From: an uncultured Clostridia bacterium
GTDB lineage: Bacteria; Bacillota_A; Clostridia; TANB77; CAG-508
DNA length: 8,977 nt
Reading direction: 5' to 3'
Assembly (NCBI GenBank): GCA_948852375.1
Contig: CAQOYX010000062.1
Location: forward strand, 1 to 8,977
Positions 1,435 through 8,669 of this stretch are shown one piece after another. A model generated the notes under the pieces. The model worked only from the letters and a program-made list of their open reading frames with translations, did not search any database and had not been told where the DNA came from. A program made the translations under genes and the position numbers. The first letter of the stretch is position 1, and the number at the start of each line of letters is the position of its first letter.

Positions 1435-1621
1435 TTTCTTTTGACTCCTCCTCTTTTTTACTAGTTATAACTTGTTGATATTGTTGTTGTTCTAATAAAT
1501 TTAATTGTTCAAATATCTCTTTAAATGTTGGCTTTAATATAAAAGCTGGTAATCCACTTTCACTAATTAATTGTGTTAATTTTTCTTTAAATTCTCTATC
1601 TTTTAAAATAATTTCTTCCAT
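1427..1621 (-). CDS. Small hypothetical tail-operon protein
   Basis: This 64-residue acidic, helical protein has a central GLPAFILKPTFKEIFEQL stretch and a Gln-rich segment (LEQQQYQQ), ending in a Lys/Glu-rich tail. Its ATG overlaps the stop of the fibre gene by one base (TAATG), with AAAGGAAG upstream, and its stop overlaps the next gene's start by eight bases. Tight coupling on both sides and codon use like its neighbours argue that it is a real gene. I do not recognise a function. A fibre-assembly chaperone or small tip component would fit the place between two fibre genes but is a guess. Confidence 0.7.
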   Translation of the reverse strand: MEEIILKDREFKEKLTQLISESGLPAFILKPTFKEIFEQLNLLEQQQYQQVITSKKEEESKENV

Positions 1622-3045
1622 TATCTTATCTTCCTTTCTACGATTTCAAGACGTTCTATTACCTGTTGTAAAGCTCTCCAGTTAATAGAAGACATAGTAT
1701 AGCTTTCTATTGCTTCTCCTGTACTTGATTTTACTATGTTCGGTGTATTATACTTGTCTCCTATAACAAAACCAACATGTTTTTTATCTGTGTCTTTTTC
1801 TGTTTTAAAATTGTACTCATATATTTCAGAGTTCTTAATTATTTCTAATGCATCATTAAACTTTGTTATATTTTTCTTTATATTTTCTAATGAAGTATTA
1901 TTAAAATTTTTCGCATAAACAACACCTGTATTACCATTAATTTTTACTCCAAAATTAGGGTCTAGACTAGAGCTTACTCCACAAACGATATTTTGTGCTG
2001 TAAGTATATGTGTATTAATACCTCCTACGCCAATTGATACAGCTAAATTATTTTCATTTTTTATAGAAATAAAATTTTTTGGATTATTTGTATTTATTTG
2101 AAATGTTCCTGAAATTTGTTTTGTATTAGTTTTTTTATTGTTGATAATATCTAGCATTGCTTGTGCATCCATAATATCAACTGAACCATCATTATCTATA
2201 TCATATAAAGTAGATGTAATAGATGTATTACTTATATTTCCAAAATATATAGCTGCAGAATTAGCTACATCATAAATATTATAATCATAAAGTCCATTAA
2301 TTGTTGTTGTAAATGTAGTTGCTCCTAGTGTAAATCCACCTATTGTTCCACTTTTAGCTACAATGTTTCCATTTTTATCTACACTAAAATTTGTACTTTT
2401 GAGTGTCATATTTTTAGTTGTAAAATTTATTTCATTATTTGCTAATATGTTTAAAACATCATTAGCTGTTAATGTAATCATATCTGCATTTATTTTAGCT
2501 TCAGATTTATTTTCATTTATTCTTAAGATAATACTAGCTCCTGTCAATTTGTCATCATCTACTTTTTTTATCAATTCTAATGCAATTTGGTCTGATAATA
2601 ATTTAATAATTGATTTTGTTTCTTCTGTTGTACTATAACTTTCTAGTTTCTGTTCTACTGATAATTCTATCTCTTGTGACGTTTCCTCTATTTTTGACTT
2701 CATTTCTAGTTTAGTCACATACATATCTGTAAAATCACTTTTTACAATATATTCAGCACACATTTGATTGTTATATTCATCTTTTACATAGATATAGTTA
2801 TCACCCTCAAACAATTGAAGTTTTGCTTCTCCTAATTCTTCTATTACTTCATTATCTAATACACTTGTTACATTGTATTTTGATAATGCAATACGTCTTA
2901 TTACTTTTGCCTGTCCATTTTCTATTATAAAATCATCATGTACATCACCTTTTTTTCGTAATTCGTCTATTTCAAATGTTATTTCTCTTTTCTCATTTGA
3001 TGGATTTGTACGTGATTGTTTATCTACTACTATTATGTACTTCAT
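1621..3045 (-). CDS. Tail fibre-like protein with dockerin-like loop and possible S74-type C-terminus
   Basis: This 474-residue protein starts after a full AGGAGGTGAT SD, one base past the hub stop. Residues 1-115 are a compact N-terminal domain, probably for attachment to the hub. About 110-190 are helical and charged. A beta region with a DKNGNIVAKSGTIGGFTLG stretch from residue 223 is typical of clostridial phage tail proteins. Residues 282-293 form a calcium-loop motif (Asp282, Asp284, Asp286, Gly287, Asp290, Asp293) like one dockerin type I repeat. The last 90 residues (about 383-474), with TSLENIKKNI, a KHVGFVIGD strand and a final NWRALQQVIERLE helix, resemble the S74 intramolecular chaperone that trimerises and sometimes cleaves itself from phage fibres. 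Ser385 sits where the cleavage Ser would be, but the usual following Asp is Leu. It likely helps recognise the host surface. Confidence 0.75.
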   Translation of the reverse strand: MKYIIVVDKQSRTNPSNEKREITFEIDELRKKGDVHDDFIIENGQAKVIRRIALSKYNVTSVLDNEVIEELGEAKLQLFEGDNYIYVKDEYNNQMCAEYIVKSDFTDMYVTKLEMKSKIEETSQEIELSVEQKLESYSTTEETKSIIKLLSDQIALELIKKVDDDKLTGASIILRINENKSEAKINADMITLTANDVLNILANNEINFTTKNMTLKSTNFSVDKNGNIVAKSGTIGGFTLGATTFTTTINGLYDYNIYDVANSAAIYFGNISNTSITSTLYDIDNDGSVDIMDAQAMLDIINNKKTNTKQISGTFQINTNNPKNFISIKNENNLAVSIGVGGINTHILTAQNIVCGVSSSLDPNFGVKINGNTGVVYAKNFNNTSLENIKKNITKFNDALEIIKNSEIYEYNFKTEKDTDKKHVGFVIGDKYNTPNIVKSSTGEAIESYTMSSINWRALQQVIERLEIVERKIR

Positions 3046-7467: not shown

Positions 7468-7607
7468 TAGTCAACACATCACTTTCAGTTACTTTATATT
7501 TTTCTTTTATTCTATCTGTCATATCATTAATTGTTAATTTCATTTTGCTATAGTATGGCTTCAACATTTCATCTATATCATCCCACATTTCCCAATATGG
7601 TTTTTTT
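7460..7607 (-). CDS. Frameshift extension of the tail assembly chaperone (lambda T-like)
   Basis: From the CCA codon at 7600-7598 a second frame encodes 46 residues beginning PYWEMWDDIDEMLKPYY and ending at TAG 7460-7462. It has no start codon of its own in a sensible place, but it reads as real protein: aromatic and acidic start, then a helical segment. In its own frame a TAA lies just before the A run, and the zero frame ends at TGA 7578-7580. The only shared open stretch is therefore about 30 bases around the seven As at 7601-7607. The fused product would be about 166 residues. By analogy with lambda gpGT it would bridge the tape measure and the tube protein. The shift needed is +1 (equivalently -2), not the usual -1. 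Confidence 0.75.
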
Positions 7608-7961
7608 CCGATTTAAAAACTTCTTGGTTCCTCCTTGCCCTAAGAATAAATCCATTGCTATTTCCATGTCTTTATAGAATTGTTTAGTAGCTTTTACTTT
7701 TTCTACTTCGTTAGAACTTAAAAGTTGCTTTCCTTTATAGTCTTGTTTTTTATCTATAATAATAAATTGTGCTTTTAAGTTCTTTCTAGCCTGCTCTATT
7801 TGATTTATGCATTTATTGTACTTTAGAGGTAATTCTATATCTCCTAAATCAAACTCTATAAAAACTTCTTTACCTTTTTCATCTTTTAAAATATTATCGT
7901 CTTTATCCTTAAATCCTAATTGTAATATATCTTTTCTCTCTTTTAAATTAATATATTCCAT
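7578..7961 (-). CDS. Tail assembly chaperone, short form (lambda G-like)
   Basis: This 127-residue charged, mostly helical protein starts at an ATG preceded by AGGAGGG at good spacing. It ends in a short out-of-phase tail (TILGNVG) after the run encoded by AAA AAA. Its position, straight before a second overlapping frame, Gp15 and the tape measure gene, identifies it as the abundant tail assembly chaperone by analogy with lambda gpG. Such proteins coat the hydrophobic tape measure before tube polymerisation and are not in the finished tail. Sequence identity between these chaperones is low, so position and the frameshift carry the call. An internal GGAGG lies about 22 bases before the A run (7630-7634); this is further than usual for a stimulatory SD. 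Confidence 0.78.
   Translation of the reverse strand: MEYINLKERKDILQLGFKDKDDNILKDEKGKEVFIEFDLGDIELPLKYNKCINQIEQARKNLKAQFIIIDKKQDYKGKQLLSSNEVEKVKATKQFYKDMEIAMDLFLGQGGTKKFLNRKKTILGNVG
7583..7607 (-). promoter_or_regulatory. Frameshift or slippage site: A7 run with abutting hairpin
   Basis: The minus strand reads CGG AAA AAA ACC in the zero frame. A Lys tRNA on the second AAA can move forward one base and still pair with AAA. Loss of one A in the RNA, by polymerase slippage, would give the same frame. Directly after the run, CCATATT (7600-7594), loop GGGA and AATGTGG (7589-7583) form a 7-bp stem with one U-G wobble and a GNRA-type tetraloop. There is no spacer, unlike most -1 frameshift stimulators. 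An eighth A would instead create a classic -1 site, A AAA AAC, so a homopolymer miscall must be kept in mind. Confidence 0.6.
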
Positions 7962-8051: not shown

Positions 8052-8576
8052 TTATTGTAATTTTATTTTCAATTCTTTTGAACTCCATATATTATCGCTA
8101 TATATTAACAATAATCCATTGTCTCCTTTTGGTTGCTCAAATGTTACAGTTCCTGTTACTTTTCCTCCTGGTATTAATTCTCCACTATGTAACGCCGTAT
8201 CTTTATCTATTGTTGTAAAAGTCATACTTTCTTGTTGTCCTTGTGAATTTTGCATTTTAAAATACAATGGATTATAGCTCAAATTACTGTTTCCTTTGTT
8301 TTCAATTGTCACATATACTATAACAAATTCTTTTCCACTTTTAGGTTTATCAAATTGGTTTCCTTGTGATTTTTCTACTTTTGTAACTATAATTGCACCA
8401 TTCCCTAACATCGCTTCTTCGCCTTGATTATATTCTGTTTTTTCACTGATACTTGATGTAGCTGGAGTAATTGTATTTTCATCACTTGTTCCAGCAACTG
8501 CAATCCCTATTATTAATATAGTAATTATCACCCAAAACCACCATTTTTTATATATTGGCTTCTTTCCTTTTTCCAT
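8052..8576 (-). CDS. DUF4352-type one-pass membrane protein (phage moron cargo)
   Basis: This 174-residue protein starts with a short basic segment (MEKGKKPIYKKWW). One hydrophobic helix follows at about residues 12-29, then a Ser/Thr-rich linker (about 30-50) and a beta-rich domain to the end. The pattern fits DUF4352: an extracellular immunoglobulin-like domain with the central stretch EFVIVYVTIENKGNSNL and a late GKVTGTVTFE strand. It contains no cysteine, so it is not a lipoprotein; it is probably anchored in the membrane with the domain outside. It is not a tail component by sequence. It has its own SD site, promoter-like hexamers and two terminators, and it splits the tail tube gene from the tail chaperones. 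The cellular role is unknown. A superinfection-exclusion or surface-modifying role is a guess from its membrane location and phage context. Confidence 0.82.
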   Translation of the reverse strand: MEKGKKPIYKKWWFWVIITILIIGIAVAGTSDENTITPATSSISEKTEYNQGEEAMLGNGAIIVTKVEKSQGNQFDKPKSGKEFVIVYVTIENKGNSNLSYNPLYFKMQNSQGQQESMTFTTIDKDTALHSGELIPGGKVTGTVTFEQPKGDNGLLLIYSDNIWSSKELKIKLQ

Positions 8577-8585
8577 ACAAAAATT

Positions 8586-8612
8586 CCTCCTTTTATTTTA
8601 TTATAAAAGGAG
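8586..8612 (-). promoter_or_regulatory. Hairpin that masks the ribosome-binding site of the DUF4352 gene
   Basis: On the minus strand CTCCTTTTAT (8612-8603) and ATAAAAGGAG (8596-8587) form a perfect 10-bp inverted repeat with a 6-base loop. The right arm contains all but the last G of the SD sequence AAAGGAGG, which ends nine bases before the ATG at 8576. In a transcript coming from the tail gene the SD would be paired. In a transcript starting at or after the TATAAT at 8605-8600 the left arm would be missing and the SD free. The pairing is seen directly; its regulatory effect is inferred from known SD-masking hairpins such as those of T4 late genes. Confidence 0.6.
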
Positions 8613-8615
8613 TTT

Positions 8616-8644
8616 ATCATATACAATATGTCATATATTGTAAT
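8616..8644 (-). promoter_or_regulatory. Possible sigma-A-type promoter for the accessory gene
   Basis: On the minus strand, ATTACA (8644-8639, four of six matches to TTGACA) is followed after 17 bases by TATGAT (8621-8616, five of six matches to TATAAT). Transcription would start near 8609. A second -10-like TATAAT lies at 8605-8600 but has no good -35 at normal spacing. Promoter look-alikes are common in AT-rich DNA. The placement between a tail gene and a gene with its own terminators is the main support. Confidence 0.35.
8622..8642. repeat. 8-bp inverted repeat, operator-like
   Basis: The arms TACAATAT (8622-8629) and ATATTGTA (8635-8642) are perfect reverse complements around a 5-base centre. 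The spacing resembles a dimeric repressor site. It shares one base with the preceding hairpin and fills most of the spacer of the best promoter-like pair for the accessory gene. AT-rich DNA makes such palindromes fairly easily, so its role is inferred. Confidence 0.4.
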
Positions 8645-8669
8645 AATTTGTCGAAAAACACAAATTATT
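8642..8669 (-). repeat. 10-bp perfect inverted repeat just after the tail gene
   Basis: The arms AATAATTTGT (8642-8651) and ACAAATTATT (8660-8669) are perfect reverse complements with an 8-base loop. The repeat begins right at the stop codon of the tail protein gene. The stem is almost all A-T and has no clear U-tract after it on the minus strand, so it is a poor intrinsic terminator. It could be a weak terminator, an RNA end-protecting hairpin or a protein-binding site. Confidence 0.6.

What the first reader, a model, noticed from the sequence alone, without database searches (positions are those of the whole stretch)
8586..8612. Perfect hairpin hides the SD of the accessory gene in read-through transcripts
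A 10-bp perfect inverted repeat pairs AAAAGGAG with CUCCUUUU just upstream. A TATAAT overlaps the left arm and loop, so a transcript starting downstream of it would lack the left arm and expose the SD, while late read-through RNA would be masked. That would let the protein be made from its own promoter but not during late tail expression, a logic known from T4 genes with early and late transcripts. The hairpin is seen; the switch is inferred.
Basis: partly seen in the sequence, partly recalled or inferred. Interest (0 to 1): 0.72.

Follow-up and report, generated by a model that had tools for sequence, protein, structure and literature searches.

The report
Prophage accessory gene with self-masking leader
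A phage accessory gene carries a small leader that, by its sequence, should let it be made from its own promoter but hide its ribosome site when the phage reads through it while building tails; the same leader is found on many unrelated accessory genes and often carries likely binding sites for the host's sporulation master switch.

Summary
The hairpin is real: minus strand 8612-8603/8596-8587, 10 bp, right arm covering the Shine-Dalgarno (SD) of a DUF4352 membrane-protein gene inside a phage tail operon. Among relatives found by protein similarity the SD is predicted masked in read-through RNA in 15 of 17 tail-operon copies, 5 of 17 other copies and 20 of 106 control genes; shuffled leaders reach this 35% of the time. 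The same -10/hairpin/SD leader precedes at least eight cargo types, nearly all in tail operons. New here: TTCGACA boxes, about 230-fold enriched, often 10 bp apart. Their reverse complement is the Spo0A box core, also found near spoIIAA in 9 of 13 host genomes. Best reading: an insulated moron cassette, made from its own (often Spo0A-linked) promoter and translationally locked during late tail transcription, working like the T4 e/soc lock. Start sites, translation and Spo0A binding are unmeasured. Tail-operon relative L001 lacks the hairpin.

The parts
8649..8655 (-). TTCGACA, exact reverse complement of the Spo0A box core TGTCGAA; degenerate copies (5 of 7 letters) follow at 10-bp steps (8645-8639 TATTACA, 8635-8629 TATGACA)
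   Evidence: on its own not beyond chance in the window (42 of 200 shuffles have one); enrichment is in the relatives
8611..8619 (-). extended -10 TGATAAACT; no -35 match (2 of 6 at best); predicted start about 8604
   Evidence: kept in position in relatives; start inferred from canonical spacing
8603..8612 (-). left arm CTCCTTTTAT (its first two bases are the last two of the -10)
8587..8596 (-). right arm ATAAAAGGAG, containing most of the SD
8586..8591 (-). Shine-Dalgarno AGGAGG
8052..8576 (-). accessory gene: N-terminal membrane anchor (KKPIYKKWWFW...) plus DUF4352 domain, 174 aa
8020..8041 (-). terminator-like hairpin AACACTTACATAGGTAGGTGTT with T-rich tail
   Evidence: same CACTTAC..GTAGGTG type behind cargo genes of L033, L304, L290
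7980..8005 (-). second terminator-like hairpin AAGACATCAGTATTAACTGGTGTCTT
   Evidence: CATCAG..CTGGTG type behind cargo of L037, L296, L299, L285
8670..8975 (-). upstream co-directional gene, cut by the window's end (phrog_3099, no assigned function; a phrog_3099 protein of L038 also matches a major tail protein family weakly, E 2e-4)
7578..7961 (-). downstream co-directional gene, taken as a tail assembly chaperone from its position and its close homologue in L031
   Evidence: no PHROG match here or in L031

Best explanation
This is the leader of an insulated moron cassette. The gene sits inside the tail operon of a (probably temperate) phage but has its own promoter: an extended -10 with Spo0A-type boxes, phased at 10 bp, in place of a -35. 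RNA from that promoter should start near the top of the hairpin, lack its 5' arm and show a free SD. RNA that reads in from upstream tail genes contains both arms, folds, and hides the SD, so the protein should not be made in bulk during late expression. Shown: the sequence features, their recurrence on unrelated cargo, predicted pairing in most tail-operon copies, the box enrichment, and matching boxes near host spoIIAA. Inferred: the start site, translational silencing, Spo0A binding, and expression in lysogens.
For: SD unpaired probability in the window 0.20 (read-through) versus 0.87 (assumed own start); the own-start value was higher in 26 of 26 cassettes with a recognisable -10, of 29 folded. 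SD masked (<=0.35) in 15 of 17 protein-selected tail-operon copies and 5 of 17 other copies (Fisher P 0.0013, rank test P 0.013), and in 20 of 106 control genes (Fisher P 4e-8). Own left arms pair better than other cassettes' left arms (-8.4 versus -7.2 kcal/mol, permutation P 1.5e-4, 16 cassettes). A different arm pair keeps the layout in L299 (CTTCTAT/ATAGGAG read by eye; SD unpaired 0.04, own arm ranks first). Exact arms-plus-SD pattern: 7 of 7 IMG/VR hits (6 distinct leaders) and 9 of 10 places in 390 genomes lie in tail operons by eye; reversed-pattern control 0 in the genomes. TTCGACA/TGTCGAA: 31 copies in 3.6 kb upstream of 29 tail cassettes versus 6 in 160 kb of the rest of 28 of those loci. 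It lies within 250 nt of spoIIAA in 9 of 13 hosts; all 13 have a Spo0A_C domain, strong (E 2e-33 or better) in 11; SRVERAIRHAIEVAW of the solved Spo0A (1fc3) is found in all 11 of those.
Against: L001 (bajarodcaudo virus 4) has the gene in a tail operon with SD but no hairpin and no -10 element. L304, in a tail operon, masks its SD only partly (0.46) although a 7-bp CCTTATA/TATAAGG stem can be drawn. L032 has a weak local stem (-3.3 kcal/mol); L037, L038 and L300 have a mismatch. In the arm-swap test five of 16 (L032, L037, L038, L300, L309) pair worse than the median foreign arm and L296 about equally. Five copies outside recognised tail operons also mask the SD (L041, L043, L295, L303, L316). 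AT-rich shuffles reach the threshold 35% of the time, and local folding energy differs from control genes only at P 0.02. 4 of 16 protein-selected and 2 of 13 pattern-selected tail cassettes lack an exact box, and 3 of 16 other copies have one. Distant DUF4352 genes of viral contigs (L111-L114) do not mask the SD (0.56-0.91).
Confidence: 0.65

Rival explanations
1. By-product: an AT-rich promoter next to a strong AAAAGGAGG site pairs by chance, and the leader spread by descent and recombination rather than by selection for pairing.
For: Shuffled upstream sequence masks the SD in 357 of 1020 trials; most arms are near-identical; five of 16 cassettes pair worse with their own arm than with the median foreign one; L001, L042 and most chromosomal copies do without it.
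Against: 15 of 17 against a 35% baseline; a different arm pair that still masks the SD (L299); P 1.5e-4 for own-arm pairing; 12 of 17 copies outside tail operons do not mask the SD.
Confidence: 0.16
2. A DNA operator: the inverted repeat around the start point binds a dimeric repressor, and RNA pairing is incidental.
For: A dyad centred at the expected start is a usual operator position (recalled).
Against: Many copies have CTCTTTTTAT opposite ATAAAAGGAG, a G-U pair in RNA but a broken palindrome in DNA; loops vary between cassettes; the arms differ in L299.
Confidence: 0.08
3. A terminator or attenuator that ends the upstream tail transcript before the accessory gene.
For: The scan lists it as terminator-like on both strands; 5 such sites in the window against 1.4 expected.
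Against: Only 3 G-C pairs and the stem is followed by GAATTTTT rather than directly by a U run; the downstream tail genes need read-through; longer terminator-like hairpins lie behind the gene.
Confidence: 0.05
4. The hairpin lock is right, but the TTCGACA boxes bind some other regulator (phage or host), not Spo0A.
For: No binding data; only 1 of 11 host spo0A leaders has a box within 250 nt (start codons uncertain in some); a second promoter class has a TTGnnn-like -35 and no phased boxes; tandem boxes elsewhere in 8 host genomes (27 with up to one mismatch, control 5) mostly lie beside genes not recognised as sporulation genes.
Against: The 7-mer is the published 0A core (PMC3485338), lies near spoIIAA in 9 of 13 hosts, and 9 of 14 same-strand neighbour distances are 10 bp; two of the host tandem sites lie near an AbrB/SpoVT-like and a YabG-like gene.
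Confidence: 0.3

Closest known systems
Translational lock of phage T4 genes e, soc, 49 and I-TevI (review PMC3014915, passages read)
   Same: SD or AUG in a helix in long read-through RNA; for e, promoters just upstream give RNA without the 5' strand that is well translated.
   Different: For T4 e the early long RNA is silent and the late RNA is translated; here, by inference, the late RNA is silent and the gene's own RNA is translated. Here one leader is shared by many unrelated accessory genes in phages of Clostridia, often with Spo0A-type boxes.
Prophage morons (term and expression in lysogens as in PMC7067206, passages read; promoter-plus-terminator layout recalled)
   Same: Single accessory gene with own promoter-like element and often a terminator-like hairpin, placed between genes that are neighbours in relatives.
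   Different: The leader adds an RNA device that should block translation from the co-directional late transcript.
Tha/Ith prophage defence of Staphylococcus aureus (PMC11087260, abstract and passages read)
   Same: An accessory gene on in the lysogen and off after induction.
   Different: Tha is switched off through an overlapping antisense gene and its protein, not by an SD hairpin in read-through RNA.
Spo0A-controlled promoters, 0A box TGTCGAA (PMC3485338, passages read)
   Same: Same 7-mer core close to the promoter; also found near spoIIAA of these hosts.
   Different: Here on prophage accessory genes; binding untested.
ISPpu9 transposase leader (PMC8450116, passages read)
   Same: A 5' UTR structure that buries the ribosome site.
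   Different: There an antisense RNA is proposed to open it; here the start point would leave the structure out.

Membership tests
T4 e/soc-type translational lock | SD or start codon paired in read-through RNA | tested here: met
   prediction only: 15 of 17 tail-operon copies; window 0.17-0.20 unpaired
T4 e/soc-type translational lock | internal promoter whose RNA lacks the 5' arm | tested here: inconclusive
   a -10-like hexamer ends 29-35 nt before the start codon in 31 of 31 cassettes given to (eight hexamers picked by hand; L001, L041, L042 and most chromosomal copies not given); starts inferred, not mapped
T4 e/soc-type translational lock | measured loss of translation in long RNA | not testable with these tools
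   needs reporter or ribosome data
Moron | extra gene between otherwise neighbouring phage genes | tested here: met
   cargo follows the phrog_3099 gene in the window, L031 and L033; in L038 (PHROG-checked) and L034 (by eye) that site is empty and cargo follows the gp15-like gene
Moron | own promoter and terminator | tested here: inconclusive
   promoter-like element present; terminator-like stem of 9 or more pairs with T-rich tail behind 10 of 17 protein-selected and 6 of 11 pattern-selected cassettes given (of 13; one of the 11 runs off its contig), no shuffle control for these
Moron | expressed in the lysogen | not testable with these tools
   no RNA data
Spo0A regulon | 0A box core TGTCGAA near the promoter | tested here: met
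   exact core in 12 of 16 and 11 of 13 tail cassettes, window included; about 230-fold enriched; L001, not in that count, has one
Spo0A regulon | Spo0A in the host | tested here: met
   13 of 13 genomes of relatives over the Pfam cut-off, strong in 11, weak only in G003 and G010; the window's own host is unknown
Spo0A regulon | Spo0A binds and changes expression | not testable with these tools
   no binding data

The most novel reading that the evidence does not exclude
Temperate phages of gut Clostridia share a plug-in expression module for accessory genes: tandem Spo0A boxes, an extended -10, a self-masking SD hairpin whose 5' arm is left out of the module's own RNA, a cargo slot and a terminator. 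It lets unrelated membrane proteins be placed in the tail operon, made in lysogens under the host's sporulation/stationary-phase regulator, and kept silent while virions are built.
Probability: 0.42. Interest if true: 0.85.

Novelty: new variant of a known kind. Interest (0 to 1): 0.72.

Why it matters
It would show how a phage can put lysogeny genes inside a late structural operon without making them at the wrong time, using well under 100 bases of leader. The leader is a searchable signature for unknown accessory genes in AT-rich phages of Clostridia, and it would tie prophage accessory genes to the host's sporulation decision, a link that can be tested directly in Bacillus subtilis.

Tried and rejected
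ATTACA-17-TATGAT (8644-8616) is another weak candidate in the window; its TATGAT is not kept in L031. L292 matched the relaxed pattern (1 of 11 loci) without a promoter and was treated as spurious. Not analysed further: L002-L030 from viral contigs and most low-identity genome loci (L044-L110), many of which match only the short N-terminal motif; the distant phage hits H2-H7 (about 30% identity); L129-L131 (41-44% identity). L044-L047 were looked at and L111-L114 folded (SD not masked; tail context not checked) but none was put in the group counts. PADLOC gave no match for the window protein and only weak 2TM effector matches (E 2.5e-4 and 8e-4) for the 203-aa cargo. PHROG superinfection-exclusion matches (E 3e-7 and 8e-6) cover the N-terminal part; the best match has no function, so a role in exclusion is only a guess. 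Counting choices: near-duplicates L039, L287, L302 and L311 were left out of group counts; L001 and L041 were missing and were added; tail context was judged by eye from translations, with PHROG run for 10 neighbours, of which 8 matched something. The 0.35 threshold was set after the folds had been seen. The six-cassette exact test (6 of 720) used a subset chosen afterwards and is not relied on. Relatives are not independent, so all P values are optimistic. Pattern-selected cassettes were chosen for the hairpin and are no evidence for it.

Full report
1. What is there. The window is a stretch of a phage tail operon read on the minus strand: a phrog_3099 gene cut by the window's end (8975-8670), the accessory gene (8576-8052, DUF4352, E 1.4e-29), a probable tail chaperone, a gp15-like gene (7467-6847), a tape-measure gene (6896-4782) and further genes. 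It folds at z -3.58 against shuffles.

2. Relatives by protein. A genome scan gave 13 relatives of 60-88% identity (L031-L043, best of 80 loci) and the phage collection one (L001, 81.5%). Reading their leaders showed a block kept in most: -10 (TATACT, TAAACT, TATAAT or TATTAT), then the left arm, a short A/T loop, then ATAAAAGGAGG or similar and the start codon. The -10 touches or overlaps the first bases of the arm. From the end of the -10 to the start codon is 29-35 nt in all 31 cassettes measured (29 tail-operon ones plus L295 and L303). With usual spacing, RNA would start near the top of the stem. Folding gives SD-unpaired 0.20 for the window in read-through RNA and 0.87 in own RNA; the own value is higher in 26 of 26 cassettes with a -10, of 29 folded, which follows in part from cutting the arm off.

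3. The leader is not tied to the gene. The pattern ACTCTTTTTATN{2,9}ATAAAAGGAGG in IMG/VR gave 7 contigs (L252 and L253 with the same leader), all in tail operons by eye and in front of different genes: a bPH_2 protein (L144), a TM2-SHOCT protein (L145), a protein without family (L252/L253), proteins with a weak DUF4190 match below its cut-off (L254, L256) and one cut off by the contig end (L255). In 390 genomes of one family a slightly wider pattern gave 10 places in 9 genomes, none with the reversed pattern; 9 of 10 are in tail operons by eye; L283 (=L043) is beside ArsC/YjbR-like genes (names by eye). A relaxed pattern in IMG/VR gave 11 loci: the same 7, L290/L291 (a zinc-ribbon-like protein, below cut-off), L293, and the spurious L292. 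Further cargo: KKWWFW-type anchors with other domains (L280, L281/L282, L285) and an unassigned protein (L288); Pfam names none of L280, L281, L285 and L288. Sites used: after the phrog_3099 gene, after the gp15-like or chaperone gene, after the tape measure or further down. In L033 and L304 tail genes were seen only upstream, with repressor-like genes downstream.

4. Less biased test. Because pattern hits are chosen for the hairpin, I searched the 203-aa cargo of L256 by protein in 380 genomes: 22 relatives. Six lie in tail operons (L296, L297, L299, L300, L304, L309), the others look chromosomal (by eye). Together with the DUF4352 set, SD-unpaired <=0.35 holds for 15 of 17 tail-operon copies (exceptions L001 at 0.93 and L304 at 0.46) and 5 of 17 others (L041, L043, L295, L303, L316): Fisher P 0.0013, rank test P 0.013. 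Of other SD-bearing genes in the tail-cassette loci 20 of 106 reach it (P 4e-8). A harsh control, shuffling the upstream DNA but keeping the SD, gives 357 of 1020 (35%), so base composition explains part of it. Pairing can survive arm change: L299 has CTTCTAT/ATAGGAG (by eye) with SD-unpaired 0.04; L304 can form CCTTATA/TATAAGG, the left strand overlapping its -10 TATAAT, but covers the SD only partly. Across 16 cassettes own arms pair better than swapped arms (P 1.5e-4), though five (L032, L037, L038, L300, L309) do worse than the median foreign arm. Distant DUF4352 genes in viral contigs L111-L114 do not mask the SD (0.56-0.91); their operon context was not checked.

5. Boxes upstream. TTCGACA/TGTCGAA is the most common 7-mer with three or more G/C upstream of the 29 tail cassettes: 31 copies in 3.6 kb, in 23 of 29, against 6 in 160 kb of the rest of 28 of those loci, and first among the 630 permutations of its letters. 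Of 16 copies outside tail operons 3 have one. For the core CGACA, same-strand neighbours are 10 bp apart in 9 of 14 cases (32 leaders). In one promoter class (window, L031-L033, L296, L299, L300, L144, L252, L254-L256, L293, L281, L282, also L295 and L303) box starts fall at about -19, -29 and -39 from the -10 (-41 in L254 and L256) and no -35 exceeds 3 of 6; in the window only the -39 box is exact. The other class (L034-L038, L040, L297, L309, L145, L290, L280, L285, L288, L304) has mostly TTGnnn near 17 nt (3 to 6 of 6), with a box elsewhere or none. The 7-mer is the published Spo0A core (PMC3485338, passages read). All 13 genomes of relatives have a Spo0A_C match, strong in 11; those 11 proteins share SRVERAIRHAIEVAW with the solved Spo0A. 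9 of 13 carry the exact 7-mer within 250 nt of the spoIIAA start taken (some starts are uncertain), three as TGTCGAA-N12-TTCGACA; the spoIIAA-spoIIAB-sigF naming is by eye. The tandem motif with up to one mismatch occurs 27 times in 8 host genomes (control 5), a few of these being the cassettes themselves; most neighbours are not recognised sporulation genes. Only 1 of 11 spo0A leaders has a box. Whether Spo0A acts on the cassettes is inference. The window's own host is not known.

6. The 3' end. Terminator-like stems of 9 or more pairs with a T-rich tail follow the cargo in 10 of 17 protein-selected and 6 of 11 pattern-selected cassettes given, in two recurring types, of which the window has one each. 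Late RNA must pass them to reach the tape measure; how is not known.

7. What it works like and what it is. The logic matches T4 e (and soc, 49, I-TevI; PMC3014915, passages read): long RNA folds over the SD, RNA from a promoter just upstream lacks the 5' strand. The timing is reversed and the device is shared by unrelated genes. As a gene arrangement it is a moron with a lock. Paper searches for such a device on morons or for Spo0A boxes on prophage accessory genes (open-licence library; first 1, 15, 10, 12, 10 and 15 rows seen) showed none that I recognised; this is not proof of absence.

8. Weak points. L001 is a true exception. L043, L295 and L303, apparently outside tail operons, carry the leader; L316 and L041 mask the SD otherwise, and L041's context is unclear. 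Start sites, translation and binding are untested. Sequences are related, so the P values overstate.

Noticed in passing
window 7470-7961 (minus): The probable tail-chaperone reading frame is broken near 7610 compared with L031, where it is one open frame; a sequence error, a decayed gene or recoding cannot be told apart.
   Followed up: partly
L298, L301, L306, L310, L312, L313, L315 leaders: Chromosomal copies of the 203-aa cargo family share another upstream motif, about TGCATAACAAAnGTATTGCAAA, instead of the TTCGACA boxes (by eye).
   Followed up: no
L035, L037, L038, L280, L285, L287, L290 leaders: In several cassettes the -10 region also pairs with the start-codon region, giving an outer stem that would hide the AUG as well.
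   Followed up: no
genomes G001, G004, G007, G008, G009, G011: Besides Spo0A, these hosts encode further stretches with weaker Spo0A_C matches, possible second readers of the boxes; G003 and G010 show only weak ones.
   Followed up: no
L300 and L303: A neighbouring gene starting MK[IL]KIPKPY occurs beside the cargo in both, perhaps another accessory gene.
   Followed up: no
window 1621-3045 (minus): Gene with a C-terminal peptidase S74 (chaperone of endosialidase) domain.
   Followed up: no
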